The notes beneath the pieces are model-generated. The model was not told the DNA's origin, made no database searches, and was given only the letters and a program-made list of their open reading frames with translations. From Solirubrobacter phytolaccae (GTDB taxonomy: Bacteria > Actinomycetota > Thermoleophilia > Solirubrobacterales > Solirubrobacteraceae), in NCBI RefSeq assembly GCF_027587195.1, contig NZ_JAPDDP010000009.1, positions 1 through 64,000 of the forward strand: DNA of 64,000 nucleotides. Reading direction: 5' to 3'. This document shows, one piece after another, positions 5,494 through 44,544 of this stretch. A program made the translations under genes and the position numbers. Each line of letters opens with the position of its first letter. The stretch's first letter is position 1.

Positions 5494-6611
5494 GCCGGCA
5501 CCGCCTTCAGGTCGTTGAGGCTTGCGTCCGCCGAGTCCTCGCGGCGGGTCTTGAGGAACAGCGCGACCGAGCCCGCCAAGGCCAGGCCGCCGACGACGAT
5601 CGGGCCGGCCGTGTCACCCAGCACGGAGACGATCCCGTACGCGCCCGCCGCGACCGCGCCAGCGCCGGGGATGGTCAGCAGCCAGGCGATGCCCATCCGC
5701 CCGGCGATGCCCCAGTTGACCTCGCTCTCACCGCGCCCGATGCCCGAGCCGACGACCGCGCCGCTCACCACCTGCGTGGTCGAGAGCGGGTAGCCGAAGT
5801 AGGAGGAGCCGAGGATCAGCGTCGCGCCCGACGCCTCGGCGGAGAAGCCCTGGGGCGGCGTGATGTCGCCCGTGACCTTCTTGCCGAGCGTGTCGATGAT
5901 CCGCCAGCCGCCCATGAAGGTGCCCAGGGCGATCGCGGTCGCGCAGCTGACCTTCACCCACAGCGGGACGGTGAAGTTGTCGGCGCTCAGGTTCCCGTTG
6001 GCGACGAGCGCAAGCACGATGATGCCCATCGTCTTCTGCGCGTCGTTCGTGCCGTGCCCGAGCGACACGAGCGACGCCGAGCCGATCTGGCCGAGCCGGT
6101 AGCCGCGCGTGGCCATGCCCTCGCCCATCCGGCGCAGGAAGAAGTAGGCGACCTTCGTGCCGATGACGGCGACGCCGCCCGCGATCAACACGGCGAAGAC
6201 GCCCGGGATGAGCACCTTCTCGAGGATGCCGGACCACTCGACGCCGCCCGATCCGACCGCGGCGAGCATCGCGCCGACCATGCCGCCGATCAGCGCATGG
6301 CTGGAGGAGGAGGGCAGGCCGAGGTACCAGGTGGTGAGGTTGAAGCCGATCGCGCCGAGCAGGCCGGCGAAGATGATCGGGAGGGCGATCTGCCCCTGGT
6401 CGACGATGCCGCTCGCGATCGTCGCGGCGACGCTGATCGACAGGAACGCGCCGATGAAGTTCAGGCTGGCCGCGAGGCCGAGCGCCTGCTTGGCCGGGAG
6501 CGCGCGCGTGGCGATCGTGGTGGCCATGGCGTTCGCGGTGTCGTGGAAGCCGTTGGTGAAGTCGAACGCCAACGCGGCTCCCACGACGACGAACAGGAGC
6601 ACGTCGTTCAT
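5490..6611 (-). CDS. pit: Inorganic phosphate transporter, Pit family
   Basis: Low-affinity metal-phosphate:proton symporter in the inner membrane. The 373 residues give about ten membrane segments. Each half carries the inverted-repeat signature of the family: DFTNGFHDTANAMAT near the N-terminus and SLGHGTNDAQKTMG in the second half; SSSSHALIGG is also conserved. ATG 6611 is chosen; the frame is open to 6674, but the extra 21 residues are Pro/Arg-rich and unlike Pit N-termini. It is the first gene of a coupled three-gene operon and is divergent from the HtaA gene, sharing a 176-base intergenic region. Confidence 0.9.
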   Translation of the reverse strand: MNDVLLFVVVGAALAFDFTNGFHDTANAMATTIATRALPAKQALGLAASLNFIGAFLSISVAATIASGIVDQGQIALPIIFAGLLGAIGFNLTTWYLGLPSSSSHALIGGMVGAMLAAVGSGGVEWSGILEKVLIPGVFAVLIAGGVAVIGTKVAYFFLRRMGEGMATRGYRLGQIGSASLVSLGHGTNDAQKTMGIIVLALVANGNLSADNFTVPLWVKVSCATAIALGTFMGGWRIIDTLGKKVTGDITPPQGFSAEASGATLILGSSYFGYPLSTTQVVSGAVVGSGIGRGESEVNWGIAGRMGIAWLLTIPGAGAVAAGAYGIVSVLGDTAGPIVVGGLALAGSVALFLKTRREDSADASLNDLKAVPA

Positions 6612-6720
6612 GCCCACGACGATCCCCCGTCCGGGCCGATCCAACCGGGGCGGTAACGGAACCTTCACGACCATGAGAACGCCGTGAGCGGGGAGCCACC
6701 GGACCGAGCGGTCCGCAAGT

Positions 6721-6750
6721 GTTAGGGCACCCTAACTCCGTTTGTTAGGG
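6721..6750 (+). promoter_or_regulatory. GTTAGGG palindrome plus a third half-site, possible iron-regulator box
   Basis: GTTAGGGCACCCTAAC at 6721-6736 is a perfect inverted repeat with 7-base arms and a 2-base centre. A third GTTAGGG lies at 6744-6750. The sequence sits in the pit/HtaA intergenic region, 38 bases before the HtaA start. The first 15 bases fit the TTAGG-N-N-A-N-CCTAAC part of the DtxR/IdeR consensus, but the right end does not. Iron control would suit a haem-binding protein; the regulator is inferred. Confidence 0.5.
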
Positions 6751-6787
6751 TCGGCGGCTCGACTACTGCTTGGAGCTGACCCTGACC

Positions 6788-9700
6788 ATGTCTCTGACTC
6801 GCCGTGCCCGAAGGCTGCTGGTAGGCCTCGTCGCCGCCTTCGGGCTTCTCTGGACCTCGACCGCCCACGCCGATCCGGTCCCGATCACCGCCGGCGCCGG
6901 CCTCGACTGGGGCGTGAAGGAGTCCTGGCGCAACTACATCACCGCCGGCGGGACGACGTTGAGCGCCGGCGCCACCCGCAACGCCGACGGCACGTTCCAC
7001 TTCCCGGTGACCGGCGGCAGCTACGACGCGGCCACGCGCGCGACGATCGTGCGCTTCGGCGGCAGCGTCGAGTTCCTCGGGCACTGCGAGGGCGCGCAGC
7101 CGTACGAGCGCCCGTGCGCGCTGGACATGACGGTCACCAACCCCTGGGTCGAGATCAACGAGGACCGCGCGATCGTCCACGCGCAGATGCGGAGCCGCCC
7201 GCGCGAGGGTGGTGAGATCACCGACTACCCGGACGTGCCGATCGCGGCGCTCGGCGTCGAGGACGCGACCCCGGTGATCGCCGGCGGCAAGACGACGTGG
7301 AGCAACCTCGCCTCGACGATGACGCTCGCGGGTAGCGACGTGTTCACGTATGCGGTCGGCACCGTGATCGATCCCGTCACGTTCGGCTACGACGGTCCGG
7401 GTGGCAAACCGCTCGGCGAGGTGTTCGCGGAGGCGGGCATCGCGACCTACGCCCGCGAGCCGATCGCCGACGGTGACCGCCCGCGCTGGACGGTCTCCGG
7501 CAAGACGGGCGGGCCGCTCGTCGGCATCCACCTGGGCATCATCTCGAGCGGGCTCTCGCTGATCGATCCGGTGACGTTCGCGGTCGTGCCCGGCAGCCGC
7601 TACACCGGCGCGTACGGCGCGTTCGGCTCCGTCGCGAGCGACCCGACGACCGGCACGGTGTTCAGCACCCAGTCCAGCGGCGGCATCCGCACGTTCACGT
7701 GGGACGGCAGCGCCTGGACGGCCACGGTCCTGGAGAACAGCACGCTCGCCGGCTCCAACGCCGGTGGTGCGACGTGGGACCCGCAGGGCAGGCGCTACCT
7801 GGTCTCGCGCACCGTCGGCAGCGACAACCAGCTGTGGCAGGTCGTGCAGGTTGCGGGGGTGTGGACGGCGTCGAAGGTCGGCTCCGTGCGCCAGACGACG
7901 ACGCTGCCGGCGCCGCTGATCCAGAGCATGATCGCGGTTCCGAACGGCAACCCGGCCAGCACCGCGGTGATCCTTGTGACGTGGTTCGGGCAGATCCACC
8001 GGCTCACGTTCGCGCCGGACGGCATCGTCGCCGAGCCGCTCACGAACGCGCCCGGCGTGACCGGCAACAAGCTGCTCAAGACGGACAACGGCGCCTACGC
8101 GGTCCAGGACGGCCGTGCGACGTTCATCCCGGTTCCCGGCACGGCGACCAACAAGACGATGGGCACTGCGCTCGCGCCGGTGACGATCCCCGGTTCGGCC
8201 GGGCTGAACGCGCTCGACACCGGCTTCGTCGCGGTCGATCCGGCGCGGGACCGGCTGTACGTGCCGTCCCTGAACCTGACGCGGATCATGCGGATCGACG
8301 CGGGCCAGCTCAAGCACTCGTTCGCGGTCCCCGGCGCGACCCGCGTCAACTACTTCGCCGACTTCCTGGCGGGCGTGAACACCGCCGGCAACCTCGTGAT
8401 CGAGTCCGACACCGAGTCAAAGGCGTTCTCGCTCGCCTACCAGAACGCCGCGCCGTCGTTCACGACCGCTCCGGCGGACACGACCGTGGACCTGAAGGGC
8501 GCGAGCGCCACGGCGACGCTCACCGTCGCCGCCACGGGCGACCCCGCGCCGACCGTCCGCTGGCAGACGCGCCTTCCCGGCCAGGCCACGTGGACGGACG
8601 TCGCCGGCGCCACCGCGAACACGCTGACCACGACCGTGACCACCGCCGACGGCGGCCGCCAGTACCGCGTGCTCGCCACGTCGAGCGCCGGAACCGTGGC
8701 CAGTCCGCGCGCGACGCTCACGCTGCACACCGCGCCCAGCGTCGCCGTCCAGCCCGATCCGCAGACGGTGGTGGCCGGATCGTCGGCGCAGTTCAAGGTG
8801 ATGGACGCCGGCAGCCCGGACCCCGTCATCACCTGGCAGCAGCTGGTCGGCGGGTTCTGGCGTGACGTCGACGCGAGCTCCGGCGACTTCGAGGTCGATG
8901 GCGGCTTCCTGACCGTGCTCGAGACCCGCTCCGCGATGACCGGCACGCAGTTCCGGGCGCGGCTTTCCAGCCCGCTCGGCACCGTGTTCTCGCGGGCGGT
9001 GACGCTCACCGTCCAGACGCCGCTCACGGAGCCGGTGACGATCCGCGGCGGGAACCTCGACTGGGGCTTCGCGAACCGCTGGCGCTGCTACGTGGTCGGC
9101 TCGGTCGCGCACGGCGGGATCGAGCTCGGCGGCGGCGTCACGCGCCTCCCGGGCACGCTCGCGACCGGTTCGCTGTGCCCGACCAACGCGGGCTCGGAGG
9201 CGCTGCGCTTCCCGGTCACCGGCGGCGCGTACGACCCGCAGACCAAGAAGCTCTCGGTGAGCCTGGCCGGCACGGTGCGCTTCTGGGGGCACGTGACCGG
9301 CGGCACCCCAGTGCTCGACACGCGCTTCTCGAACCTGCGCCTGGAGGCCGACGGGCAGACCGCGACGCTCTACGGCGACGCGTCCGGCTCAACCATGACC
9401 GACTCGACGGTGAAGACGTGGTCGGGGGTGGCGCTGGTCAGCGTCGACCTCGCGGGCGCCGGGCCGACCGTGCAGGACGGCCGGATCGTCTGGACCGCGG
9501 CGCCGACGACGCTCACCGCGGCGGGCTCGAGCGTGTTCGGCGGCTACCCGACCGGTGAGCCGTTCGACCCGCTGACGCTGTCGGCGTCGGCGGAGCCCAC
9601 GGCGCTTCCGGAGGAGGAGACGCCCACGCCGCCGGTGCAGATCTTGCAGACGATCCAGCACATCACGCAGGTGCTGCCGGCGCCGCTGCCCGCCCCGGCG

Positions 9701-10030
9701 GCCGCGCCGTCGATCACCGCGCGCACCGCGACGCAGGCGCTCGGCAAGAGCCGCGTGGCGACGCTCGCCACGCTGCGCTGCCCGGCCGGCGCGACCGCGT
9801 GCACGGTCAAGGCGCCCAAGCGCGTCAACGTGACGGTCGGCGGCAAGCGCTACGCGTTGACGGTCGTCGCCCCGGCCACGCTCAAGCCGGGCGCGACCGG
9901 GACGCTGCGCGTGCGCGTCCCGGTCGCGGCGGCCAAGCGCCTCGCCGGCCGGACCACCACCGTCACCGTCAAGCTCACCGTGGGCGCCGCGAGCAAGACG
10001 GTGAAGGTGAAGGTCAAGCGGGCGAAGTAA
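6788..10030 (+). CDS. Secreted multidomain protein with two HtaA haem-binding domains
   Basis: Encodes 1080 residues. A signal peptide covers 1-28 (RRARRLLVGLVAAFGLLW, cut near AHA). The first HtaA domain (about 31-210) shows LDWGVKESWRNYI, FPVTGGSYDAAT and FGGSVEFLGH. A propeller-like region follows (about 215-540), then two Ig-like domains (about 545-745). A second HtaA domain (about 745-910) shows LDWGFANRWRCYV, FPVTGGAYDPQT and VRFWGH. A Lys/Arg-rich beta-sandwich tail ends in KVKVKRAK. HtaA domains bind haem in Corynebacterium through conserved Tyr and His; both repeats keep a Tyr after the tryptophan and a GH. Haem capture at the surface is therefore likely. No haem ABC transporter is adjacent. 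ATG 6788 is chosen over TTG 6770. The 3' end overlaps the permease by 17 bases. Confidence 0.8.
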   Translation: MSLTRRARRLLVGLVAAFGLLWTSTAHADPVPITAGAGLDWGVKESWRNYITAGGTTLSAGATRNADGTFHFPVTGGSYDAATRATIVRFGGSVEFLGHCEGAQPYERPCALDMTVTNPWVEINEDRAIVHAQMRSRPREGGEITDYPDVPIAALGVEDATPVIAGGKTTWSNLASTMTLAGSDVFTYAVGTVIDPVTFGYDGPGGKPLGEVFAEAGIATYAREPIADGDRPRWTVSGKTGGPLVGIHLGIISSGLSLIDPVTFAVVPGSRYTGAYGAFGSVASDPTTGTVFSTQSSGGIRTFTWDGSAWTATVLENSTLAGSNAGGATWDPQGRRYLVSRTVGSDNQLWQVVQVAGVWTASKVGSVRQTTTLPAPLIQSMIAVPNGNPASTAVILVTWFGQIHRLTFAPDGIVAEPLTNAPGVTGNKLLKTDNGAYAVQDGRATFIPVPGTATNKTMGTALAPVTIPGSAGLNALDTGFVAVDPARDRLYVPSLNLTRIMRIDAGQLKHSFAVPGATRVNYFADFLAGVNTAGNLVIESDTESKAFSLAYQNAAPSFTTAPADTTVDLKGASATATLTVAATGDPAPTVRWQTRLPGQATWTDVAGATANTLTTTVTTADGGRQYRVLATSSAGTVASPRATLTLHTAPSVAVQPDPQTVVAGSSAQFKVMDAGSPDPVITWQQLVGGFWRDVDASSGDFEVDGGFLTVLETRSAMTGTQFRARLSSPLGTVFSRAVTLTVQTPLTEPVTIRGGNLDWGFANRWRCYVVGSVAHGGIELGGGVTRLPGTLATGSLCPTNAGSEALRFPVTGGAYDPQTKKLSVSLAGTVRFWGHVTGGTPVLDTRFSNLRLEADGQTATLYGDASGSTMTDSTVKTWSGVALVSVDLAGAGPTVQDGRIVWTAAPTTLTAAGSSVFGGYPTGEPFDPLTLSASAEPTALPEEETPTPPVQILQTIQHITQVLPAPLPAPAAAPSITARTATQALGKSRVATLATLRCPAGATACTVKAPKRVNVTVGGKRYALTVVAPATLKPGATGTLRVRVPVAAAKRLAGRTTTVTVKLTVGAASKTVKVKVKRAK

Positions 10031-11750
10031 CCAACACCCGTTCCGGGACCGGCGGCGCCTCCTCGCCCGCCGGTCCCGGGTCGACCCCTTCGACGGCCCG
10101 GTCGACCGCTTCCTCCGGCAGCCGCAGCGCGACCGCCAGGCGGTAGACGACGAGGCTCCAGGCGGCGGAGGCGACCAGCCCGCCGACGAGCCCGAGGGCG
10201 TTGTTCCCGCCGTCCGCGAGCACGTCGTTGAAGGGCCCGACGCCGCCGATGATCCCGCCCGCGCCGAAGCCGCCGAAGTACGAGATCACGAGCATGCCGA
10301 GCAGGTACGGGCCGATCCACAGCGCCGCCCGCCACTCGACCTTCGTCGCCGCCGGGTTGAGCTTGAACGCGTACGAAAAGGCGATCAGCGCGTAGCCGAC
10401 GAGCATCGCCGCCATCAGCGTCGTGAGCGTCTGCCAGCCGGACCAGTACATGATCCAGGTGGCGCACACGAACGCGAGCGGGGCGAGCACACCGGCGGCC
10501 GGCAGCCGGTACACGCGCGGCAGGTCCGGCTTGCTCTTGCGCAGCGCGCCCAACGCCAGCGGCGCCGACGCGTACATCAGCACCGACGCGCTGGTGACGA
10601 TGCCGACGAGCTTGCTCCAGCTCGGGAACGGCAGCAGGAAGAGCAGGCCGATCGCGGTCGAGAACAGCACGCCGAACACCGGGACGAGCGTGCGCCGGCT
10701 CGTACGCTCGAACTGCTCGGGGATCGACCCGTTGCGGGCCATCGCGTGGCTGATGCGCGACGAGGTCGTGAGGTAGATGAGGCCGCTGCCGAACGGCGAC
10801 ACGACCGCGTCCAGCCGCAGGATGAACGCGATCCACGCGAGCCCGGCGACGGACGCGATCGCGTAGAACGGGCCGGCGTTCAGCGCCACCACGGCGGGGT
10901 CGGTGGAGCCCGCGCCGAGGCCCGTCCAGGTGTGCTCGACGAGCAGCTTCGGGTCGAGCGAGCCGATGAACGCGAACTGCAGCAGCGTGTACAGCGCCGC
11001 GCCGATCAGGATCGAGGTGATCACCGCGCGCGGGAGGTCGCGGCCGGGGTTCTTGGCCTCACCGCCGAGTTGCGTCGCCTGCTCGAAGCCCAGCAGCGCG
11101 AACACGATCCCGCCCGTGGGCAGCGAGACGAGGATGGCGTGGATCGCGCCGCCATCGTGGACGAAGAAGCCGCCGCCCGCGGTGAAGTTGCCGGGGTGGA
11201 AGTGCGTCGCGAGCAGCACGACGACCGTGCCGACCGGGATCAGGACCTTCCACACGGTGATCGCGCTGTTGGCGCGCGAGAGCCAGCGGATGCCGATCAG
11301 GTTCAGGATCACGAAGCAGAGCATCAGGCCGGTCGCGACGAGCATCCCCTGGTGGGTCAGCGTGCCGCTCGCGTTGTAGAGGCCGTGGCCCCAGGAGGTA
11401 GTGGACATGTACTGGATGGCGGCGAGCACCTCGATCGGCGCGGTCGCCGCGGCCTGCAGGTAGGAGGCCCAGCCGAACGTCATCCCCGCGAAGTTGCCGA
11501 ACGCGTAGTGGGGGAAGCGGCTCGTGCCGCCGCTGACGGGGAACAGCCCCGCCAGCTCGGCGTGCACGAGCGCGAGCAGGATCACGATCCCCGAGGCGAG
11601 GACCCAGCCGATCAGGGCGGACGGGCCGGCGACGGTCGCCGCGACGAGCGCGCCGAACAGCCAGCCGGAGCCGATGATCGAGCCGACCGAGGTCCAGAGC
11701 AGACCCCAGAAGCCGACGTGGCGCTTGAGCTGTGAGTCGGTGGTGATCAT
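10014..11750 (-). CDS. APC-family amino acid permease
   Basis: A 578-residue cytoplasmic-membrane transporter with about 12-14 hydrophobic segments. The N-terminus (GFWGLLWTSVGSIIGSGWLF) is the unwound TM1 substrate motif of amino acid/polyamine/organocation carriers; GFEQATQLGGEAKNPGRDLP is the typical TM6/loop motif. The C-terminal 35 residues are acidic and proline-rich. Its ATG overlaps the stop of the phosphopantetheinyl transferase gene (ATGA), so it is the third gene of the synthetase operon. It could supply the amino acid monomer or export product; the family mostly imports. The 3' end overlaps the convergent HtaA gene. Confidence 0.85.
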   Translation of the reverse strand: MITTDSQLKRHVGFWGLLWTSVGSIIGSGWLFGALVAATVAGPSALIGWVLASGIVILLALVHAELAGLFPVSGGTSRFPHYAFGNFAGMTFGWASYLQAAATAPIEVLAAIQYMSTTSWGHGLYNASGTLTHQGMLVATGLMLCFVILNLIGIRWLSRANSAITVWKVLIPVGTVVVLLATHFHPGNFTAGGGFFVHDGGAIHAILVSLPTGGIVFALLGFEQATQLGGEAKNPGRDLPRAVITSILIGAALYTLLQFAFIGSLDPKLLVEHTWTGLGAGSTDPAVVALNAGPFYAIASVAGLAWIAFILRLDAVVSPFGSGLIYLTTSSRISHAMARNGSIPEQFERTSRRTLVPVFGVLFSTAIGLLFLLPFPSWSKLVGIVTSASVLMYASAPLALGALRKSKPDLPRVYRLPAAGVLAPLAFVCATWIMYWSGWQTLTTLMAAMLVGYALIAFSYAFKLNPAATKVEWRAALWIGPYLLGMLVISYFGGFGAGGIIGGVGPFNDVLADGGNNALGLVGGLVASAAWSLVVYRLAVALRLPEEAVDRAVEGVDPGPAGEEAPPVPERVLVTSPA

Positions 11751-12124
11751 CGCCAGCACACCCATCCGGTGAAGCCGTCGGGGAGCGGGAGCGGTTCGGC
11801 GTGCCAGGCACCGGTGACGCCTTCGCTGAGCGCCCGCAACCGGCGCGGGTCGTAGTCGACCGCGTCGCCGAGTGCCTTGGCCAGCGCTTCCTTGGCCGAC
11901 CACAGCGAGATGATCTCGGCGTCGGTCTCCGGGACGGTCTCGTCGGGTGTGACGATCGACGCCGCGAACCGCGCGTCGCATTCGACGACGCGCTCGATGT
12001 CGACGCCGACCGGGCCGTCGTGGAAGGCGACGAGCGCGTACGGCTCGCAGTAGGAGCGCGACTGGCCGCCCAGCGCGCGGGCACGTTCGCGGAGGTTCGC
12101 GCCCTCGATCAGCATGACGTTCAT
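11747..12124 (-). CDS. 4'-phosphopantetheinyl transferase, short Sfp type
   Basis: Transfers the phosphopantetheine arm from CoA to the serine of carrier proteins. The 125 residues contain the two hallmark magnesium/CoA motifs: GVDIE at 40-44 and WSAKEALAKALG starting at 75. It is about half the length of two-lobed Sfp enzymes, closer to AcpS-size proteins, with N- and C-terminal extensions reduced. It overlaps the synthetase stop (ATGA at 12121-12124) and the permease start, so it almost certainly activates the carrier domain of the synthetase encoded just upstream. Confidence 0.8.
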   Translation of the reverse strand: MNVMLIEGANLRERARALGGQSRSYCEPYALVAFHDGPVGVDIERVVECDARFAASIVTPDETVPETDAEIISLWSAKEALAKALGDAVDYDPRRLRALSEGVTGAWHAEPLPLPDGFTGWVCWR

Positions 12125-15100
12125 CGCGCCGTCACCGGGGTCCCGTGCCAGCGCGTGCCGGCGGGCAGCTCTTCGCCGCGGAGCACGACGCTGTGGGCTT
12201 CGATGGTGGTCGAGGCGCCCACCCGTGTGTCGGGCAGGACGACCGCGGTCGGGCCGAGCGTCGCGCCCTGCTCGAGATGCGTCGGGCCGATCCGCAGCAG
12301 GCGGTCGTGGAACAGGTGCGTCATCAGGCACGCGCCGCGGTTGACGGCCGCCCCGTCGTCGAGCGTGATCATGTCGTACTCCGTGACGGCGGTCGTCTCG
12401 CACCACACGCCACGCCCGACCTTCGCGCCCATCGCGCGCAGGTACAGCGACATCAGCGGCGTGCCGATCGCCAGGCGCAGGAGCTTCTCGTCGGCGAGCT
12501 GCTCCTGGGCGGCGTTCATCATCTCGTCGCGCCACACGAACGCGGACCACAGCGGGTGCTGGCTGCGCGTGTAGCGGCCGATCAGCAGCCACTTCAGCGC
12601 GACCGTGATCGCGGTGCAGACGACGCCGCCGGCGAGCAGGACGAACGGGGCGGCGAGCACCCCGACCAGCACGCCCGCGTGGACGACGACCCAGACCATC
12701 GCGGTCAGCTCCATGATCTCGACGAAGAGCGCGATCGCGTTCGGGCCGAGCAGGCGCAGCGTGTCCATCACGCCGCGCGCGATCCGCAGCCGCCGGGGCG
12801 GGTTGGTCGTGCGTGCGGCGTCGGCCGCGTCGGGATGGCGCGGCAGCTCGAGCGCGGGGACGCCGAGCCACGAGGTGCCGTTGTCCGGGCGCATCGGGGA
12901 CAGCGTCATCACGCCCAGCAGGCTGTCGTCGCCGAGCCTGGTGTCGCCGCGCAGGATCGAGCCGGGGCCGAGGAACGTGCGGTCGCCGATCGCGATCGGC
13001 TCGACCGCCAGCCAGCCGTCACGCGAGCGGGTGGTGCAGAAGCCGATGTCGTCGGTGCCCTGGGCGAGCTCGCCGAACGAGACGAGCGGGTTGAGCCCGG
13101 TCGAGACGGAGAGCTCGGTGCCCTTGCCGATCTTGATGCCCATCAGCCGGTACCAGTTGCGCGTGAAGCGGGACGCGTAGAGCGGGAACAGCAGCGTGAT
13201 CGAGCTCTTCTTGAGCTCCTCGCCGAACCACAGCGCCCAGCCGGTCGGGCCGTGCTCGCCGTGCCAGCCGGGCTTGACCAGGCGCCACACGAGGCGCAAG
13301 GTGAGCGCGACGATCAGCGCGGTCAGCGGCACCGCGATCACGGTGATGACGAGGACTTCGAGGATGAGCTCGTCGAGCGAGCTGGAGAGCGTCGGCAGCT
13401 CGGAGCCGAGCAGCGCGAGCAGGCCGAGCGCGGGCAGGAACGCGGCGAGGCTGAGCAGCAGCTCCAGGCCGAGGCTGAAGGCGAACGCGAGCGGCCACAG
13501 GCCCTTGTTGGTGGCGGGCGGCTGCGTCTTGGGCCAGTGGTCGCCCGCGTGGCCGACCTTCCTGGCGGGCGCGCCGCCCCAGCGCTCGTGCGCGGGGACA
13601 TGCCCGTCGACGACGGTGCCGGGCTCGAGCTCCGCGCCCGTGCCGATGACGGCGCCGGGGTTGAGCATCGAGCGCGAGCCGATCCGCGCGCCGGGGCCGA
13701 TCTCGATCGCGCCGACGACGAGCTCCTGCCCGTCGATCCACCAGCCGCGCAGGTCGACGTTGCCCTCGATGGTCGCGCCGGCGCCGACCGTCAGCAGCGA
13801 GCCGGCCGGCGGGACGGTGGCGAGGCGGGCGCCGTCGCCGACCTTCGCGCCGACCAGCCGCGCGTACTTCGCGGCCCACGGCGTGCCACCGAGGCGCTCG
13901 TAGCGGGTGACCTCGGCGAGGCGGTCGATGAACCACAGCCGCGCGGCGAGCCATGAAGCGCGCGGGTAGCGGCCGGGCTCGACGTCGCGCAGGAGCACGC
14001 GGGTGGCGACGAACTGGAGCGCGACGTGCGCGGGCGGGCTGGCCAGCAGCACCCAGGCGGCGAGCAGCGCCACCCAGTGCACGTGCGGCGTGCCGATGTC
14101 GACGAGGTTGCCGTACACGAGGGTGCCCAGCAGCCACGGCACGGCCTGGATCGCGAACAGCACGAAGACGCCGACGAGCTGCAGGGCCTGGAGGGTGCGC
14201 ATGCCCTTCAGCGAAAGCTCGGGGATGTCGGTGATCTGTGGGCCCGCGATGGCTTCGAGATGCGTGGCGAAGGCGCTGAGCGTGCGGTGCTCGTACACGT
14301 CGGCGACGGCGACCGCGGGGTGCCCGACGCGCAGCACGCTGATCAGCTTCGCGGCGGCGAGCGAGGTGCCGCCGAGCGCGAAGAAGTCGCTGTCGGGGCC
14401 GATCGCGACCGGGCCGAGCTGCTCGCGCCAGTGGTCGGCGAGAGCGCGCTGGGCTTCGGTGAGCTCGCCGTCGGTGGTGTTGGTCTCCGGCGGTGGCCAG
14501 GGGAGCGCCTTGCGGTCGACCTTGCCGGAGGTGGCGAGCGGCATGTCGTCGAGGACGACGATCATCGGGACGAGGCTCGCGGGGAGGCGGTCGGCGACGT
14601 CGGCGCGCACGTGCTCGGCCGTGACCGCGCCGGTGACGTAGCCGACGAGGAGCTTGTTGCCGGCGGCGGACTCGCGCACGACGGTCGCGGCGGCGCGTAC
14701 GCCCTCGGTCGCGTTGAGCGCGTCGTCGAGCTCGCCCAGCTCGATCCGGCGGCCGCCGATCTTGACCTGGTGGTCGCGGCGGCCGACGAACGCGAGGCCG
14801 TCGCGGGTGCGGCGGACGATGTCGCCGGTGCGGTACGCGCGGTCCCAGCCGAGCGCGGGGAGCGGGCGGTAGCGCTCGGCGTCGAGGTCGGCGCGGAGGT
14901 AGCGGCCGAGGCCGACGCCGCCGATCACGAGCTCACCCTCCTCGGCCGGCTGCTCGTGCTCGTCGACGATCGCGAGCTCCCAGCCGCGCAGCGGATCGCC
15001 GATCGTCACGGGCACGCCGGGCAGGAGGCGGATCGCGGTGGAGACGACGGTGGCCTCGGTCGGGCCGTACGTGTTCCACAGCTCGCGGGTGGGGGCGAGG

Positions 15101-15927
15101 CGCTGGACGAGCGGCTCCGGGCACGCCTCGCCGCCGAGGATGAGCAGGCGCACGGAGGCGAGCGCGGAGTCGTCCCAGATCGCGGCGAGCGTCGGCACGG
15201 TCGAGATGACCGTGACCTCGCGCTCGGCCAGCCACGGCCCGAGCTCCACGCCGCTGCGCACGAGGGCGCGCGGTGCCGGCACGAGCGCGGCGCCGTTGGC
15301 CCACGCGAGCCACATCTCCTCGCAGGACGCGTCGAACGCCACCGACAGCCCGGCGAGCACGCGGTCCTCGGGGTGCACGCGCCACAGCTCGGCCTCGCCG
15401 TCGATGAACGCGACCGCGGCGCGGTGGCTGACCGCGACGCCCTTCGGCGCGCCGGTCGAGCCGGAGGTGAAGATGATCCACGCGTCGTCGTCGGCGTGGG
15501 GCCGGCCGACGCCGCCTTCGGGCTCGCCGCGCCAGGCCAGCTCGAGGTCGTCACCGATCGCGACGCAGGCGTTCGCGTCCGTGAAGATCTGCTCCGCGCG
15601 GGCGTCCGGGTCGTCGCGGTCCACCGGCACGTAGGCGGCGCCCGCCATGAGCGCGCCGAGGATGGCGACGTACAGGTCGGCCGTGCCGCTGGCGACGCGC
15701 ACGCCGACGCGGTCGCCGGGGCCGACGCCACCGTGGCGCAGGCGGCCGGCGAGCTCACGGACGCGCTCGGCGAGGGCCGCGTAGGTCAGCTGCGTGGTCG
15801 GCGTGTCGAGCGCGAGCCGCCCGCCGTGGGCCGCGACCGTCGCCTCGAACACGTCGATGAGCGTCGCCCGCGGGGCGGGCGGGCCCACCGCGGCGGGGTC
15901 GAGATCGGGGATGTCGGTTGTGCTCAT
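12121..15927 (-). CDS. Pls/PosA-type non-ribosomal peptide synthetase
   Basis: Encodes 1268 residues. The adenylation domain (about 20-480) has FTSGSTGAPKG at 153-163, NTYGPTEATV at 285-294, YRTGDIV at 365-371, and the catalytic lysine in SGKVDRKAL at 467-475. The carrier domain has its serine at about 522 in LGGTSLAA. Then come three pairs of membrane helices (about 583-635, 808-880, 1060-1112). They alternate with three hexapeptide left-handed beta-helix-like segments (about 690-790, 925-1020, 1165-1262). There is no condensation or thioesterase domain. This is the architecture of epsilon-poly-L-lysine synthetase and PosA-type enzymes, in which the membrane modules polymerise one amino acid. 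Aligning by eye to GrsA gives the pocket residues D-A-E-S-I-G-T-V-V-K; the Glu at the third position suits a basic amino acid. The substrate is inferred. Confidence 0.85.
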   Translation of the reverse strand: MSTTDIPDLDPAAVGPPAPRATLIDVFEATVAAHGGRLALDTPTTQLTYAALAERVRELAGRLRHGGVGPGDRVGVRVASGTADLYVAILGALMAGAAYVPVDRDDPDARAEQIFTDANACVAIGDDLELAWRGEPEGGVGRPHADDDAWIIFTSGSTGAPKGVAVSHRAAVAFIDGEAELWRVHPEDRVLAGLSVAFDASCEEMWLAWANGAALVPAPRALVRSGVELGPWLAEREVTVISTVPTLAAIWDDSALASVRLLILGGEACPEPLVQRLAPTRELWNTYGPTEATVVSTAIRLLPGVPVTIGDPLRGWELAIVDEHEQPAEEGELVIGGVGLGRYLRADLDAERYRPLPALGWDRAYRTGDIVRRTRDGLAFVGRRDHQVKIGGRRIELGELDDALNATEGVRAAATVVRESAAGNKLLVGYVTGAVTAEHVRADVADRLPASLVPMIVVLDDMPLATSGKVDRKALPWPPPETNTTDGELTEAQRALADHWREQLGPVAIGPDSDFFALGGTSLAAAKLISVLRVGHPAVAVADVYEHRTLSAFATHLEAIAGPQITDIPELSLKGMRTLQALQLVGVFVLFAIQAVPWLLGTLVYGNLVDIGTPHVHWVALLAAWVLLASPPAHVALQFVATRVLLRDVEPGRYPRASWLAARLWFIDRLAEVTRYERLGGTPWAAKYARLVGAKVGDGARLATVPPAGSLLTVGAGATIEGNVDLRGWWIDGQELVVGAIEIGPGARIGSRSMLNPGAVIGTGAELEPGTVVDGHVPAHERWGGAPARKVGHAGDHWPKTQPPATNKGLWPLAFAFSLGLELLLSLAAFLPALGLLALLGSELPTLSSSLDELILEVLVITVIAVPLTALIVALTLRLVWRLVKPGWHGEHGPTGWALWFGEELKKSSITLLFPLYASRFTRNWYRLMGIKIGKGTELSVSTGLNPLVSFGELAQGTDDIGFCTTRSRDGWLAVEPIAIGDRTFLGPGSILRGDTRLGDDSLLGVMTLSPMRPDNGTSWLGVPALELPRHPDAADAARTTNPPRRLRIARGVMDTLRLLGPNAIALFVEIMELTAMVWVVVHAGVLVGVLAAPFVLLAGGVVCTAITVALKWLLIGRYTRSQHPLWSAFVWRDEMMNAAQEQLADEKLLRLAIGTPLMSLYLRAMGAKVGRGVWCETTAVTEYDMITLDDGAAVNRGACLMTHLFHDRLLRIGPTHLEQGATLGPTAVVLPDTRVGASTTIEAHSVVLRGEELPAGTRWHGTPVTAR

Positions 15928-16002: not shown

Positions 16003-16875
16003 CTACGGCAATCCTCTCCGGTCGCTACTTAGGGCACAGCCGATACGGGTTGCGACGTCCTCGGGCTCGGGGACGCGGATGAGCTCGTAGCCGGCGTTGC
16101 GGAACAGCTCGTCGCGCTCGGCGTCGCTGCGGCGGCTCGGCGGGCGCGTGTGCGGCGGGCCGTCGAGCTCGACGATGAGCTTGAGGTGCGGCCAGTGGAA
16201 GTCGACTTCTTCGCCGAGGAACGTGGTGTTGACGATCGGGCGCGGCAGGCCTTGGGCGTCGAGGAGGGCGAGGGCGTGGATCTCGCCGCGGGAACGAGTG
16301 CCGGCTGAGCCCGCCTCGTACAGGGCGATGGCCTCGTCGAGGAGGGCGACGTGGCGTCGTCCGTTGGCTCTTTGTCTGGCGTCCTGGGTGGCGAGGAGCG
16401 AGTAGGCGCCGTTGTAGGCCGCCTGGTGGATGACCGCGGTGATCTCGTGCGGGACGCGGACGACGTCGGTGAGGTCGACGAGGAGGCGGGCGACGGAGGT
16501 GACGGGGATGTCGTCCCGGTCGGTGCGGTCGCGCCAGTGGATCGTCGCGCGGCGGTATCGGGTGCCCGGCGACGACTGGCGCTTGCGTGGGACAACGACA
16601 TCGATGAAGGAGGCGCGCCACTTGATGAGCCCGTGGAGCTCAGCCGCGGCCCAGTGGCTGAGCAGAGCGCCCGGGCCGGCAGCGAGGACCGCCGCGAGCA
16701 GCTCGCCTTGGCGGCTCAGCGGTCCGAGCGAGTAGACGCCGCGTGCCCGCCGGCGAAGAGCGCCGCGGTCCACGCGCTTCTTGACCGCGCTGTCCGAGAG
16801 CCCGGCCGCGTGGAGCTGCGCGAGGGTCACCAGCCCGTGCTGGCGCGCCGCGAAGGCCGAGATGGCGAGGTCCAC
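16003..16875 (-). CDS. AbiEi-like winged-helix protein with C-terminal DUF559 nuclease-like domain
   Basis: Encodes 290 residues. The N-terminus (AISAFAARQHGLVTLAQLHA, then RVDRGALRRRARGVYSL) is the winged-helix opening of AbiEi-type antitoxins. The C-terminal 60 residues (VDFHWPHLKLIVELDG, then RD-x-LFRNAGYELIRV) match the DUF559/very-short-patch-repair-like fold, with E/D residues in nuclease positions. Such fusions are abundant and usually solitary in actinobacteria; their role is unproven. GTG 16875 is preferred because the protein then begins at the family N-terminus; the frame is open to GTG 16923, but that start lies across a hairpin. No toxin gene is adjacent. Confidence 0.75.
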   Translation of the reverse strand: MDLAISAFAARQHGLVTLAQLHAAGLSDSAVKKRVDRGALRRRARGVYSLGPLSRQGELLAAVLAAGPGALLSHWAAAELHGLIKWRASFIDVVVPRKRQSSPGTRYRRATIHWRDRTDRDDIPVTSVARLLVDLTDVVRVPHEITAVIHQAAYNGAYSLLATQDARQRANGRRHVALLDEAIALYEAGSAGTRSRGEIHALALLDAQGLPRPIVNTTFLGEEVDFHWPHLKLIVELDGPPHTRPPSRRSDAERDELFRNAGYELIRVPEPEDVATRIGCALSSDRRGLP

Positions 16876-16878
16876 GGA

Positions 16879-16925
16879 GGGTGCGGTCGGAAACTGTCCT
16901 GAGGGGAAAGTTTGCGACCGCACCC
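16879..16925. promoter_or_regulatory. Long imperfect hairpin in the leader of the AbiEi-like gene
   Basis: GGGTGCGGTCG at 16879-16889 pairs with 16915-16925. After one mismatch the stem continues five more base pairs (16891-16895 with 16909-16913), leaving a 13-base loop. It lies immediately upstream of GTG 16875. It could be an autoregulatory operator for the winged-helix protein or an RNA attenuator. No T-run follows, so it is not a standard terminator. Confidence 0.5.
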
Positions 16926-40120: not shown

Positions 40121-40285
40121 ATGCCGAACATCGGCCCCATGGAACTCGTCGTCGTGCTCGTGGTCGCCCTGCTCGTCCTGGGCCCCAAGCGGCTTCCCGC
40201 CGCCGGGCGCTCACTGGGTCAGGGCATCCGTGAGTTCCGCCAGTCGATCACTGGCGCATCGACCCACACAGAGGAGAAAGCATGA
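40121..40285 (+). CDS. tatA: TatA-type twin-arginine translocase subunit
   Basis: A 54-residue protein, typical of short actinobacterial TatA. It begins MPNIGPMELVVVLVVALLVL, a single membrane helix preceded by the conserved IGP-x-EL. It then has GPKRLPAAGRSLGQGIREFR, the hinge and amphipathic helix with the FGP-x-KLP-like motif. TatA oligomers form the pore for folded Tat substrates. AGGAG lies seven bases before the ATG, and its stop overlaps the ATG of the ThuA gene. Its place in an operon that starts with a Tat substrate suggests a dedicated translocase component; tatB/tatC are not in the window. Confidence 0.85.
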   Translation: MPNIGPMELVVVLVVALLVLGPKRLPAAGRSLGQGIREFRQSITGASTHTEEKA

Positions 40286-43200
40286 AGAGGGGATTGGGTG
40301 CGGCTCTACTGAGCCTTGCCCTCGTAGCGCCCGCCACGGCGGCAGCGCAACCGAAGGCCGCGCCGGCCGACCCGTACAAGGTGCTCGTGGTCACGAGCAC
40401 GCAGGACGCCGCGTCCACGGCGGGCATCAGCGCGATCACGAACGCGGTCGGCAGCGCCGGCACGGTCACCGCGCCGGCCCCGGCGGAGGTCGGCGCGCAG
40501 TTCACGCCGGCCGGCCTGGACGCCTACCGCACGGTCGTCTTCCTGAACACGGGCCAGGCCAGCCCGCTGAACGACGCGCAGCGCGCGAACTTCGAGGCGT
40601 ACTTCAAGAAGGGCGGCGGCTTCGTCGGCATCGGCTCCGCCGTCGAGACCGACTCGAGCTGGGCGTTCCTGACGAACGTGCTCGGCACGCGGTCCTCGGG
40701 CCGCACCAGCTCCCAGAGCGGCACCGTGAAGGTCTTCGACCGCGTTCATGATGCGACGAAGAACCTGCCGGAGTACTGGGATCGCACCGAGGCTTGGTAC
40801 AACTTCTCGACGAACGTCCGCGGGCTGTCGCACGTGCTCGCGACCGTGGTCGAGGACCCGTTCGGCCCGCAGCCGGGCGGCAACACGCTCGACGGCATCG
40901 CCGGCGGCACGATGGGCGCCAACCACCCCGTGTCCTTCTGCAAGGACTTCAACGGCGGTCGCTCGTTCTACACCGCGCTCGGCACCGACGCGTCGTCGTT
41001 CGACGCGCAGTGGCAGACGCACCTGAAGGGCGCGATCAGCTGGGCCGCGGGCCAGAGCGATCCGGCCTACAGCGACTGTGGCGCCACCGTCCTGAAGAAC
41101 TTCCAGCAGGTCAAGGTCTCGGCCCCGCCGAACCTGAACGAGCCGATCGGCTTCGACCAGCTGCCGGACGGCCGCCTGATCCAGACCGCTCGCCGTGGCG
41201 AGCTGCGCCTGCACGACCCGGTCAAGGGCACGACGCAGGTCATCGCCGACTTCTCGTCGACGAGCCTGCCGACCACGCAGCGCATCTACACGCACTCCGA
41301 GGACGGCCTGTACGGCCCGGCGGTGGACAACGACTTCGCCACCAACCACTGGGTCTACCTCTACTACTCGCCGCAGACGGTCACCGACGTCAAGCTCTCC
41401 ACGGGCGAGATCGTCACGCAGACCACCCCGAACACGACCCCGCCCACGAGCGCGGCGTCGAAGACGGCGTGGGACCCGTACGTCGGCTACTTCCAGCTCT
41501 CCCGCTTCAAGTTCATCGACGGCGACGGCACCAATCCGCCGCGGCTCGACCTGACCTCGGAGCAGCAGATCCTCCGCGTCTCCAACAACCGCCAGCAGTG
41601 CTGCCACGTGGCGGGCGACATCGACTTCGACTCCCACAACAACCTGTGGTTCGTCACCGGCGATGACAACGAGGCGAACGGCATCAACGGCGCCGGCTGG
41701 GCCCCGATGAACGATCAGCTCACCGACGAGCAGCAGACCGTGCGCAACACCAACGCGACCGGTGGCACGTTCACGCTGTCCTTCAAGGGCCAGACGACCG
41801 CGCCGCTGCCCTACAACGCGACGCCACTCCAGGTCGACGCCGCGCTGGAGGCGCTCTCCACCGTCGGCGCCAACAACGTCCAGGCGTCGGGCGCCAGCAC
41901 GGCCAACGCGGCCGTCGTCAACGTGTTCTTCCGGCGCGGGCTGCAGCAGGCCGACCAGGAGCAGGTCACGATCAACGGCGCGGGCCTCACCGGCAACTCG
42001 CCGACGGTCACCGCGGCCACGACGCAGCAGGGCGGCTGGTTCCTGAACCCGATCGGCGACACCCGCCGCGGCGCCGCCAACACGAACGACCTGCGCGGCA
42101 AGGTCAACCGCATCAAGGTCAAGGACGGCGCGATCCCGGCCGCCGACTTCAACAAGGCCGACCTCGGCTCGGGCGGCGCGTACACGATCCCGGCCGGCAA
42201 CCTGTTCCCGCTCCAGGGCGGCCAGCCGCAGGCGAAGACCCGTCCCGAGGTCTACGCGATGGGCTTCCGCAACCCCTACCGCCTGCAGGTCGACGAGGAC
42301 GACGTCGCGTACGTGACCGACTACTCGCCCGACGCGCAGTCCCCGCAGCGCGGTCGCGGCCCGGCCGGTACCGGCCGCGTCGAGATCGTCCGCAAGCCGT
42401 CCAACTACGGCTGGCCGATGTGCTACTCGAAGAAGCTCAGCTACTACAAGTGGAGCTACTCCGAGTTCATCCCGAACTACAACCCCACCAGTCCGGCGCT
42501 CGGCGTGCCGCTCAACGACCCGCCGCAGAAGTGGGACTGCACCGGCGCTTCGGTGCGCAACGAGTCCAAGTGGGTGCGTGACGGCGGCCCGGCCAACGAG
42601 GCCGGCCTCGCCGACCTGCCCCCGGTGACCGATCCGGAGATCTGGTACTCGTACCGCGACAACCCGTCGGCGGCCGTTCCGCAGCCGCTCGGCACGCCGT
42701 GCCCCGAGTACTCGGATCCGACCCCGGGCCCGATCGCGCCGGGCTCCACCACGGAGTGCGCGCGCCTGTTCCCGGAGCTGTACGCGGGCCTGGCGCAGGT
42801 CGGCCCGCACGGCGCGGCCAAGTACAACTACAGCGCGGCCAACCCGAACCCGGCCAAGTTCCCGCCGTACTGGGACGACTCGATCATCCTCGGCGAGTTC
42901 ACGCAGGACACCATGCGTGAGATCAAGCTCGACTCGCAGAAGCGGGTCTTCAAGATCAACACGGCGCTGGACTGCGGTGCGGTCGCCGGCTTCGGTGGCG
43001 TCGCCACCGCGCCGTTCGAGTTCGAGTGCGACAACCCGGAGGACCTCCAGTGGGGGGCCGACGGCAACCTGTACCTGCTGACGTACGGTGACGGCTTCTT
43101 CGCCATCAACGGCGACGCCGGCCTGTACAAGTGGCAGTACGTGAAGGGCCAGCGCGCGCCGAAGGCCGTGCTGAGCACGAACAAGACCGACGGCGCGCTG

Positions 43201-44544
43201 CCGCTGACGGTCCAGTTCACCGGCTCGGCCTCGAGCGACCCGGATCCGGGCGACTCGATCCGCTACGAGTGGGACTTCGGCGACGGCTCCCCGATCTCCG
43301 AGGAGGCCAACCCGAGCCACATCTACACCAAGGCCGGCCGCTACACGGCCGTCCTGAACGTGATCGACTCGTCGGGCAAGAAGACGGCGACGTCCACCGT
43401 CATCACGGCCGGCAACACCGCTCCGACCGTCACGGTCGAGGCGCCGATCCAGGGTGGCCTGTTCAAGTTCGGCGACGTGATCAGCTACAAGGTCACGGTC
43501 ACCGATCCCGAGGAGGGCACGATCGACTGCAAGGACGTCGTCACGACGTTCGTGCTCGGCCACGACACGCACGGCCACGCTGAGAACAGCGCGACGGGCT
43601 GCAGCGGGCTGCTGGAGACGATCGCGGACGACGTCGATCACGGCGGCAACGTGTTCGGCGTGATCAGCGCGACGTACGCCGACAAGGGTGCGCCGGGCGC
43701 TCCGTCGCTGGAGACCACCAGCCAGGTGACGATCCGCCAGAAGCACACCGAGGTCGAGTTCGTCGTCAACCAGTCCGGCACGGCGACGGCGACCAACACC
43801 GACGGGATCGCCGGCCTCCACCGGTCGAACCTGGGCGCCGGCGAGTGGCTGCAGCTGAACGGTCCGCTGAACCTGCAGCAGATCGACTCGCTCTCGTTCC
43901 GGGTGGCCGACGCGGCCGCGGGTCGCACGGCCGGCTCGCCGCTGGCCGCGATCGAGGTCCGCGCCGACTCGATCACCGGCCCGATCGTGACCACCGCCAA
44001 CCTCGTCTCCACGGGCGGGACCGGCACGTGGTCGACGCAGACGTTCCCGATCTCGCTGACCGGCACGCACGAGCTGTTCTTCGTGTTCCGGACGGTGACG
44101 AACGGGGCGACGGGCAACAACCTGTTCAACTTGAACTGGGCGGAGTTCGGCGGCAACGGCGTCACGACCACCCTGACCAAGGCGAACGGCGACGTGGGCG
44201 GTGCGGTTCCGGCCACGCTGTCGCTGTCCCTGGGCGCTCCGGCCACGTTCGGCGCGTTCACGCCGGGCGTGGAGAAGACGTACACGGCCAAGACGGACGC
44301 GAACGTCATCTCGACCGCCGGTGACGCGTCGCTGACGGTCAGCGACCCGGGTCACCTGACCAACGGGACGTTCTCCCTGCCGCAGCCGCTGCAGGTCGCG
44401 TTCTCGAAGTCCAGCTGGACCGGCCCGACCTCCAACGAGAAGGTGGACATCACCTTCTCGCAGAAGATCGGCGCCAACGACGCGCTCCGCACGGGCGCGT
44501 ACAGCAAGACGCTGACGTTCACGCTGAGCACGACTCAGCCGTAG
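40282..44544 (+). CDS. Secreted ThuA / sugar-dehydrogenase-like / PKD protein
   Basis: Encodes 1420 residues. After a signal peptide (MKRGLGAALLSLALVAPATA) come a ThuA domain (about 31-255: YKVLVVTSTQDA, FKKGGGFVGIGSA, GRSFYTALG) and a soluble-glucose-dehydrogenase-like propeller (about 273-953). The propeller has QCCHVAGDIDFDSHNNLWFV, AANTNDLRGKVNRIKV and AMGFRNPYRLQV. A module of about 90 residues (493-583: TFTLSFKGQTTAPLPYNATP) is inserted in the propeller. Then follow a PKD domain (about 958-1043, YEWDFGDGSP), a beta-rich domain (1050-1150), a CBM6-like domain (1156-1293) and the C-terminal domain shared with two neighbours (1300-1420). It probably binds and oxidises sugars outside the cell. 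Its ATG overlaps the tatA stop; the signal itself looks Sec-type. Confidence 0.85.
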   Translation: MKRGLGAALLSLALVAPATAAAQPKAAPADPYKVLVVTSTQDAASTAGISAITNAVGSAGTVTAPAPAEVGAQFTPAGLDAYRTVVFLNTGQASPLNDAQRANFEAYFKKGGGFVGIGSAVETDSSWAFLTNVLGTRSSGRTSSQSGTVKVFDRVHDATKNLPEYWDRTEAWYNFSTNVRGLSHVLATVVEDPFGPQPGGNTLDGIAGGTMGANHPVSFCKDFNGGRSFYTALGTDASSFDAQWQTHLKGAISWAAGQSDPAYSDCGATVLKNFQQVKVSAPPNLNEPIGFDQLPDGRLIQTARRGELRLHDPVKGTTQVIADFSSTSLPTTQRIYTHSEDGLYGPAVDNDFATNHWVYLYYSPQTVTDVKLSTGEIVTQTTPNTTPPTSAASKTAWDPYVGYFQLSRFKFIDGDGTNPPRLDLTSEQQILRVSNNRQQCCHVAGDIDFDSHNNLWFVTGDDNEANGINGAGWAPMNDQLTDEQQTVRNTNATGGTFTLSFKGQTTAPLPYNATPLQVDAALEALSTVGANNVQASGASTANAAVVNVFFRRGLQQADQEQVTINGAGLTGNSPTVTAATTQQGGWFLNPIGDTRRGAANTNDLRGKVNRIKVKDGAIPAADFNKADLGSGGAYTIPAGNLFPLQGGQPQAKTRPEVYAMGFRNPYRLQVDEDDVAYVTDYSPDAQSPQRGRGPAGTGRVEIVRKPSNYGWPMCYSKKLSYYKWSYSEFIPNYNPTSPALGVPLNDPPQKWDCTGASVRNESKWVRDGGPANEAGLADLPPVTDPEIWYSYRDNPSAAVPQPLGTPCPEYSDPTPGPIAPGSTTECARLFPELYAGLAQVGPHGAAKYNYSAANPNPAKFPPYWDDSIILGEFTQDTMREIKLDSQKRVFKINTALDCGAVAGFGGVATAPFEFECDNPEDLQWGADGNLYLLTYGDGFFAINGDAGLYKWQYVKGQRAPKAVLSTNKTDGALPLTVQFTGSASSDPDPGDSIRYEWDFGDGSPISEEANPSHIYTKAGRYTAVLNVIDSSGKKTATSTVITAGNTAPTVTVEAPIQGGLFKFGDVISYKVTVTDPEEGTIDCKDVVTTFVLGHDTHGHAENSATGCSGLLETIADDVDHGGNVFGVISATYADKGAPGAPSLETTSQVTIRQKHTEVEFVVNQSGTATATNTDGIAGLHRSNLGAGEWLQLNGPLNLQQIDSLSFRVADAAAGRTAGSPLAAIEVRADSITGPIVTTANLVSTGGTGTWSTQTFPISLTGTHELFFVFRTVTNGATGNNLFNLNWAEFGGNGVTTTLTKANGDVGGAVPATLSLSLGAPATFGAFTPGVEKTYTAKTDANVISTAGDASLTVSDPGHLTNGTFSLPQPLQVAFSKSSWTGPTSNEKVDITFSQKIGANDALRTGAYSKTLTFTLSTTQP

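What the first reader, a model, noticed from the sequence alone, without database searches (positions are those of the whole stretch)
10014..15927. Coupled Pls/PosA-type synthetase, phosphopantetheinyl transferase and permease operon: candidate cationic homopoly(amino acid) system
Seen: three minus-strand genes joined by ATGA overlaps. The first encodes A domain, carrier domain and a C-terminus with six membrane helices alternating with three hexapeptide beta-helix segments, and no condensation or thioesterase domain. Known: this layout defines epsilon-poly-L-lysine synthetase (Pls) and PosA-type enzymes, which polymerise one amino acid. By-eye alignment to GrsA gives a binding pocket of D-A-E-S-I-G-T-V-V-K; the acidic third residue suits a basic monomer. 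Unlike the streptomycete pls locus as I recall it, the carrier-priming enzyme and a permease are in the same operon, and no degrading peptidase is seen. Product identity is inference.
Basis: partly seen in the sequence, partly recalled or inferred. Interest (0 to 1): 0.8.

Follow-up and report, generated by a model that had tools for sequence, protein, structure and literature searches.

The report
Polylysine synthetase with its own activator
A soil actinobacterium carries a gene for the known kind of enzyme that makes the antimicrobial polymer epsilon-poly-L-lysine, and in this bacterial class that gene is regularly followed by an unusually small, apparently dedicated enzyme that switches it on, where other actinobacteria usually keep a polymer-degrading peptidase.

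Summary
Three minus-strand genes joined by ATGA overlaps encode a 1268-aa Pls/PosA-family synthetase (TIGR02353, 514 bits against a cut-off of 423), a 125-aa phosphopantetheinyl transferase (PPTase) and an amino-acid permease. The by-eye pocket DAESIGTVVK is right and identical, 10 of 10, to that of the solved epsilon-poly-L-lysine synthetase (7WEW), so L-lysine is predicted rather than just 'a cationic monomer'. AlphaFold gives a confident C-terminal model (pLDDT 93) with the expected layout.

The new part is the PPTase. In a sample of 399 genomes of the class, all 18 with a lysine-type pls have it directly downstream, and none of the other 381 has a strong match; a phylum sample found none elsewhere. 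It is a minimal Sfp-like enzyme, about half the size of Sfp. In 64 of 75 pls loci from other actinobacteria a PldII-like peptidase lies nearby, usually directly downstream; none lies at the class loci examined.

The permease is not a conserved partner: it is linked to pls only in the window's genus, and survives intact in two congeners where pls and the PPTase are a deletion scar.

Verdict: new variant of a known kind. Activity and product are untested; NAPAA clusters were already reported in Solirubrobacter.

The parts
12121..15927 (-). pls: Pls/PosA-family NRPS-like synthetase, 1268 aa (P0001)
   Evidence: TIGR02353 513.9 bits (cut-off 423.1), TIGR01733, PF00501, PF00550, PF00132; best solved relative 7WEW epsilon-poly-L-lysine synthetase, 560 bits
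14503..15849 (-). adenylation domain, residues 27-475
   Evidence: PF00501/TIGR01733; aligned to 7WEW over 14-480
15043..15333 (-). substrate pocket D199 A200 E203 S242 I263 G265 T286 V294 V295 (with K469 at 14521-14523): DAESIGTVVK
   Evidence: identical 10/10 to 7WEW, GrsA spacing 0,1,4,43,64,66,87,95,96
14257..14445 (-). carrier (thiolation) domain, residues 495-557; attachment Ser522 at 14362-14364
   Evidence: PF00550 1.3e-10; FFALGGTSLAAAKL
12133..14184 (-). C-terminal membrane polymerisation domain (TIGR02353), residues 582-1265
   Evidence: AlphaFold pLDDT 93.1, pTM 0.92
14017..14196 (-). first membrane helix pair, residues about 578-637
   Evidence: hydropathy, model helices
13276..13503 (-). 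second membrane helix pair, residues about 809-884
12577..12741 (-). third membrane helix pair, residues about 1063-1117
12301..12321 (-). THLFHDR motif in the third beta-helix segment, residues 1203-1209; candidate catalytic histidines (inference)
   Evidence: THLFHDR in 95 of the 100 aligned rows that have letters there; T, first H, D and R invariant in the 50-row alignment A3
11747..12124 (-). minimal Sfp-like phosphopantetheinyl transferase, 125 aa (P0002)
   Evidence: PF01648 34.8 bits; G40 D42 E44 and W75 K78 E79 A80 invariant in 21 rows; AlphaFold pLDDT 93.8; best fold match Sfp 4mrt_A, Z 13.3
12121..12124 (-). ATGA stop/start overlap pls-PPTase
   Evidence: sequence
10014..11750 (-). 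APC-superfamily amino-acid permease, 578 aa (P0003); operon neighbour, probably not a dedicated component
   Evidence: PF13520 6.5e-40, nearest solved 5OQT amino acid transporter; linked to pls only in the genus
11747..11750 (-). ATGA stop/start overlap PPTase-permease
   Evidence: sequence

Best explanation
The operon makes epsilon-poly-L-lysine by the known Pls mechanism. The small PPTase puts the 4'-phosphopantetheine arm on Ser522 of the carrier domain (inferred from family, motifs and strict pairing). The A domain adenylates L-lysine and loads it on that arm (inferred from a pocket identical to the proven lysine enzyme). The membrane-embedded C-terminal domain, three helix pairs carrying three beta-helices, repeatedly joins the lysyl thioester to a side-chain amine and lets the chain go without condensation or thioesterase domains (established for Pls and PosA, not tested here). 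In this class the gene slot after pls, which holds a PldII-type degrading peptidase in most other actinobacteria, holds a dedicated minimal Sfp-like PPTase. The permease downstream is a general amino-acid transporter that became attached in one genus.
For: TIGR02353 over its curated cut-off. A domain closest to 7WEW by a wide margin (560 bits; PosA 8G95 175 bits). Ten of ten pocket residues identical to 7WEW; PosA work shows that the acidic residue binds the side-chain amine and that Ala at position 2 goes with Lys enzymes (PMC10522769). The lysine code holds across the clade (91 rows identical, 7 more with one conservative change), and some members in Micrococcaceae have a dapA-like lysine-pathway gene directly downstream. 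All 18 lysine-type pls genomes in a 399-genome class sample have the PPTase directly downstream on the same strand; no strong match in the other 381; none outside in a 296-genome phylum sample. PPTase and pls distances correlate (Mantel r 0.40, 0 of 2000 permutations as high). All three genes are under purifying selection against congener G002 (dN/dS about 0.3).
Against: No biochemical or expression data. Pls genes are often silent: C. variabile makes no detectable polymer natively (PMC8117764). The PPTase lacks most of the first half of Sfp and has SRSY where Sfp-type enzymes have SHS, so its activity must be shown. The genome has two other PF01648 matches, one a full-size Sfp-type protein, so priming could come from elsewhere. 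Two congeners have lost the pls-PPTase pair.
Confidence: 0.8

Rival explanations
1. Same type of synthetase, but a different monomer (ornithine, diaminobutyrate, beta-lysine or a modified lysine).
For: The acidic pocket residue is shared by these enzymes, and PosA tolerates several diamines. No lysine-specific gene lies at this locus.
Against: Known codes differ: PosA DMEHNGTVSK and beta-lysine DGESISVVNK (PMC10522769); the diaminobutyrate-like relative in G371 is DFEVLSVVSK. The window is identical to the Lys enzyme.
Confidence: 0.12
2. The small PPTase is not dedicated to Pls but serves another carrier, or is inactive; its place in the operon is incidental.
For: It lacks much of the Sfp N-terminal half; other PPTases exist in the genome.
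Against: Strict co-occurrence and adjacency over 18 genomes in 7 genera, no strong match without pls, invariant motif residues D42, E44, E79, correlated distances with pls, dN/dS about 0.33.
Confidence: 0.12
3. The three genes form one functional system in which the permease imports lysine for the polymerase or exports the polymer.
For: ATGA overlap with the PPTase in the window and the same order in congener G002.
Against: No permease relative next to any other pls of the class examined. In G001 and G006 the permease stays about 85% identical while pls and most of the PPTase are deleted. Relatives sit unlinked in many genomes without pls. Nearest solved relatives are amino-acid transporters.
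Confidence: 0.15
4. The operon is a relic that is no longer expressed or active.
For: Two congeners carry a deletion scar of pls plus PPTase; the window PPTase is the shortest of the family.
Against: All three frames intact, all motifs kept, dN/dS about 0.3 for each gene against G002.
Confidence: 0.08

Closest known systems
Epsilon-poly-L-lysine synthetase Pls, Streptomyces albulus (A domain 7WEW), with pldII
   Same: A-T-membrane domain order, TIGR02353-type enzyme, identical ten-residue pocket, next gene overlapping pls by 4 bases (PMC4361855)
   Different: the overlapping next gene here is a PPTase, not the PldII peptidase
PosA, delta-poly-L-ornithine synthetase, Acinetobacter baumannii (8G95-8G98)
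   Same: same architecture and acidic pocket residue (PMC10522769)
   Different: different code (DMEHNGTVSK), single-gene operon, much weaker A-domain score (175 against 560 bits)
Corynebacterium variabile Pls (proven epsilon-poly-L-lysine maker)
   Same: family and mechanism (PMC8117764)
   Different: operon with a peptidase gene
Sfp-type PPTases (Sfp, 4mrt/1qr0)
   Same: fold (Z 13.3, 124 residues aligned, rmsd 2.1) and GVDIE / WxxKEA motifs
   Different: 125 aa against about 225; most of the N-terminal half absent; SRSY in place of SHS
In-cluster PPTases of other pathways (e.g. Gra-ORF32, granaticin; PMC9813960)
   Same: a PPTase gene beside the carrier enzyme it serves
   Different: called Sfp-type there; not a class-wide partner of Pls

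Membership tests
Pls/PosA family NRPS (TIGR02353, cationic homopoly(amino acid) synthetases) | TIGR02353 terminal domain over curated cut-off | tested here: met
   513.9 bits against 423.1
Pls/PosA family NRPS (TIGR02353, cationic homopoly(amino acid) synthetases) | A and carrier domains upstream, no condensation or thioesterase domain | tested here: met
   Pfam and NCBIfam scans
Pls/PosA family NRPS (TIGR02353, cationic homopoly(amino acid) synthetases) | three membrane helix pairs alternating with three beta-helix segments | tested here: met
   hydropathy, Hexapep matches, AlphaFold model
Pls/PosA family NRPS (TIGR02353, cationic homopoly(amino acid) synthetases) | makes an isopeptide-linked homopolymer | not testable with these tools
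   needs biochemistry
Epsilon-poly-L-lysine synthetase (Pls) | lysine-type pocket code | tested here: met
   DAESIGTVVK identical to 7WEW
Epsilon-poly-L-lysine synthetase (Pls) | groups with Pls rather than with PDAP, PDAB or ornithine enzymes | tested here: inconclusive
   A-domain score far better to Pls than to PosA and the class sits beside the Streptomyces Pls clade, but the tree holds only one enzyme of another type, on a long branch
Epsilon-poly-L-lysine synthetase (Pls) | pldII peptidase in the operon (a usual neighbour, not a defining property of the enzyme) | tested here: not met
   absent here and at the class loci examined
Epsilon-poly-L-lysine synthetase (Pls) | activates L-lysine and makes epsilon-poly-L-lysine | not testable with these tools
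   needs assay
4'-phosphopantetheinyl transferase superfamily (PF01648) | profile match over curated cut-off | tested here: met
   34.8 bits against 25
4'-phosphopantetheinyl transferase superfamily (PF01648) | motifs G[IV]D.E and WxxKEA | tested here: met
   G40 D42 E44 W75 K78 E79 A80 invariant in 21 rows
Sfp-type PPTase | about 220-aa pseudodimer with both halves | tested here: not met
   125 aa, one compact unit
APC-superfamily amino-acid permease (PF13520) | profile match over cut-off | tested here: met
   137.8 bits against 27

The most novel reading that the evidence does not exclude
A previously undescribed family of minimal, roughly half-size Sfp-like PPTases evolved as obligate partners of polylysine synthetase in one actinobacterial class. 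They may act as homodimers, and may gate the toxic polymer's synthesis by priming, in place of the PldII peptidase that degrades it elsewhere.
Probability: 0.2. Interest if true: 0.6.

Novelty: new variant of a known kind. Interest (0 to 1): 0.42.

Why it matters
Epsilon-poly-L-lysine is an approved food preservative (PMC8117764), and Pls-type enzymes need a primed carrier domain; PosA was treated with Sfp in vitro for this (PMC10522769). A compact PPTase that evolution keeps beside Pls is a natural partner for expressing such enzymes, and the swap of peptidase for PPTase raises a testable question about how these bacteria protect themselves. It also adds about 20 deeply branching lysine-type synthetases for work on the little-understood polymerisation domain.

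Tried and rejected
Permease as conserved partner: rejected. PPTase as ordinary AcpS: AcpS chains align to residues about 35-125 only, with Z 10.0 or less, below Sfp at 13.3. Small PPTase near pls outside the class: none found; the PPTases near pls in Kocuria, Arthrobacter and Nesterenkonia are full-size and on the opposite strand, in 5 loci, with a further hit in L104. A solved structure of the C-terminal domain: the profile search and Foldseek listed only beta-helix acyltransferases, gamma-carbonic anhydrases and the like, with TMq 0.18 or less among the rows shown; absence from the list is not proof of absence. Literature on a PPTase in a pls operon or on polylysine in this class: searches of open papers found none beyond 'NAPAAs' listed by antiSMASH in Solirubrobacter; most subscription papers were not searchable.

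Full report
WHAT IS THERE. The window lies on contig C169 of a 7.7-Mb genome. G030, in the same family, has a contig of the same length (3,458,291 bases) as Conexibacter sp. S30A1, so the class is taken to be Thermoleophilia (inference). On the minus strand, pls (15927 to 12121, 1268 aa), a PPTase gene (12124 to 11747, 125 aa) and a permease gene (11750 to 10014, 578 aa) follow each other with two ATGA overlaps.

THE SYNTHETASE. TIGR02353, which NCBI names 'Pls/PosA family non-ribosomal peptide synthetase', matches residues 582-1265 at 513.9 bits (cut-off 423.1); A and carrier domains precede it, and no condensation or thioesterase domain was reported. The nearest solved sequence is the A domain of epsilon-poly-L-lysine synthetase, 7WEW, at 560.7 bits; PosA (8G95) scores 175 bits. 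The pocket residues stand at the gap-free GrsA spacing and read D A E S I G T V V K, identical to 7WEW. In PosA the equivalent Glu binds the side-chain amine, and position 2 helps set chain length, with Ala in lysine enzymes (PMC10522769). The prediction is therefore L-lysine. Of 104 aligned rows (7WEW included), 91 have the same code and 7 more a single conservative change. AlphaFold on 50 aligned relatives gives a confident C-terminal domain (pLDDT 93.1, pTM 0.92) with three repeats of helices plus beta-helix, as described for PosA. The most conserved histidine motif is THLFHDR at 1203-1209. I suggest it as part of the active site; that is inference.

THE PPTASE. P0002 matches PF01648 above its cut-off. 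In the class, TIGR02353 proteins (E up to 1e-40) occur in 20 of 399 sampled genomes. The same sample was searched with an alignment of the PPTase: 18 genomes have a strong match (E 1e-49 or better), every one with a copy next to and downstream of a pls on the same strand, and none of the other 381 has one. The two exceptions among the 20 are other kinds of TIGR02353 protein: G371 (30% identity, code DFEVLSVVSK, aminotransferase-like gene downstream) and G299 (permuted domain order). A second strong copy in G257 lies at a contig end, so its partner cannot be seen. Loci (G022, G009) and from genome contigs (L036, L037, L038, L039) agree. A 296-genome phylum sample gave no match outside the window genome. 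Pls and PPTase distances correlate over 19 pairs (Mantel r 0.40, 0 of 2000 permutations).

SIZE AND FOLD. The family is about 125-180 aa. AlphaFold on 21 relatives gives pLDDT 93.8. The best fold match is Sfp with CoA and a carrier protein, 4mrt_A: Z 13.3, 124 of 125 model residues aligned, rmsd 2.1, against 225 in Sfp; AcpS chains reach Z 10.0 over about 90 residues. G40, D42, E44, W75, K78, E79 and A80 are invariant. So it is a minimal Sfp-like enzyme. Whether it works as a monomer or dimer is unknown. The genome has two other PF01648 matches, one full-size Sfp-type.

WHAT SITS THERE ELSEWHERE. In 75 pls loci from other actinobacteria, 64 hold a PldII-like M1 peptidase within the fetched flanks, in most cases starting at or near the pls stop, and 5 hold a dapA-like gene. 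S. albulus pldII overlaps pls by 4 bases (PMC4361855). None of the class loci examined has PldII. Genome-wide, 17 of 20 searched TIGR02353-bearing genomes of the class have no PldII-like protein at E 1e-10; the window genome, G002 and G024 have unlinked relatives at 27-39% identity. The gene swap is an observation; that control of priming replaces degradation as self-protection is speculation.

THE PERMEASE. It is an APC-superfamily amino-acid permease. Beside pls it occurs only in the window genome and G002. In congeners G001 and G006 the locus is a scar: a short open frame that joins the start of pls, a piece near its end and the last third of the PPTase, while the permease is intact and about 85% identical. 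Relatives are common and unlinked. I read it as a passenger.

SELECTION AND PHYLOGENY. Against G002, dN/dS is 0.32 (pls), 0.34 (PPTase) and 0.29 (permease) by a simple Nei-Gojobori count. The class's synthetases lie on one side of a branch with support 99 (quick tree).

NOVELTY. Pls-type enzymes are well known and widespread in actinobacteria, and 'NAPAAs' were already listed for Solirubrobacter genomes (PMC10722151). New, as far as the open literature could be searched, are the strict pls-PPTase pair, the small PPTase family, and the replacement in the peptidase slot. I score this a new variant of a known kind, interest 0.42.

LIMITS. Everything on activity, product and dedication is inference from sequence, co-occurrence and models. 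The class sample is 399 genomes, many of them draft. 'Strong' was set at E 1e-49 after seeing a gap between 1e-49 and 1e-13.

Noticed in passing
L181 (G299:C190:9001-25000), frame at 6472-11257 +: A TIGR02353 protein with apparently permuted order: carrier, membrane/beta-helix domain, then an A domain at the C-terminus (1595-aa frame). It has the highest TIGR02353 score of the class sample (716 bits).
   Followed up: partly
L182 (G371:C51:110001-127000): A poly-diaminobutyrate/diaminopropionate-like synthetase (code DFEVLSVVSK) with an aminotransferase-like gene directly downstream (named by eye) and no small PPTase.
   Followed up: partly
L197:4700-5000 (G001) and L198:8000-8230 (G006): Deletion scar: a short open frame joining the start of pls, a piece near its end and the last third of the PPTase, still overlapping an intact permease.
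   Followed up: yes
L049, L072, L076, L079, L099: In Micrococcaceae a full-size PPTase lies on the opposite strand about 1.5-3.5 kb past pls; an independent, looser pls-PPTase association.
   Followed up: partly
L041, L049, L057, L104: dapA-like lysine-pathway gene directly downstream of pls, genetic support for lysine as the monomer.
   Followed up: partly
6770-10030 +: Large protein with HtaA and Ig-like domains, convergent with the permease and overlapping its 3' end by 17 bases.
   Followed up: no
40282-44544 + and 57389-62743 +: Two very large proteins with the same mix of ThuA, GSDH, PKD and CBM6 domains, the second downstream of a branched-chain-type ABC transporter set.
   Followed up: no
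16003-16923 -: AbiEi_4 plus DUF559 gene 75 bases upstream of pls on the same strand; no link to the polymer is apparent.
   Followed up: no
L120:12909-15666 +: In congener G002 a second APC-type permease and an arginine-deiminase-like gene lie about 1-4 kb past the operon (named by eye, not scanned).
   Followed up: no
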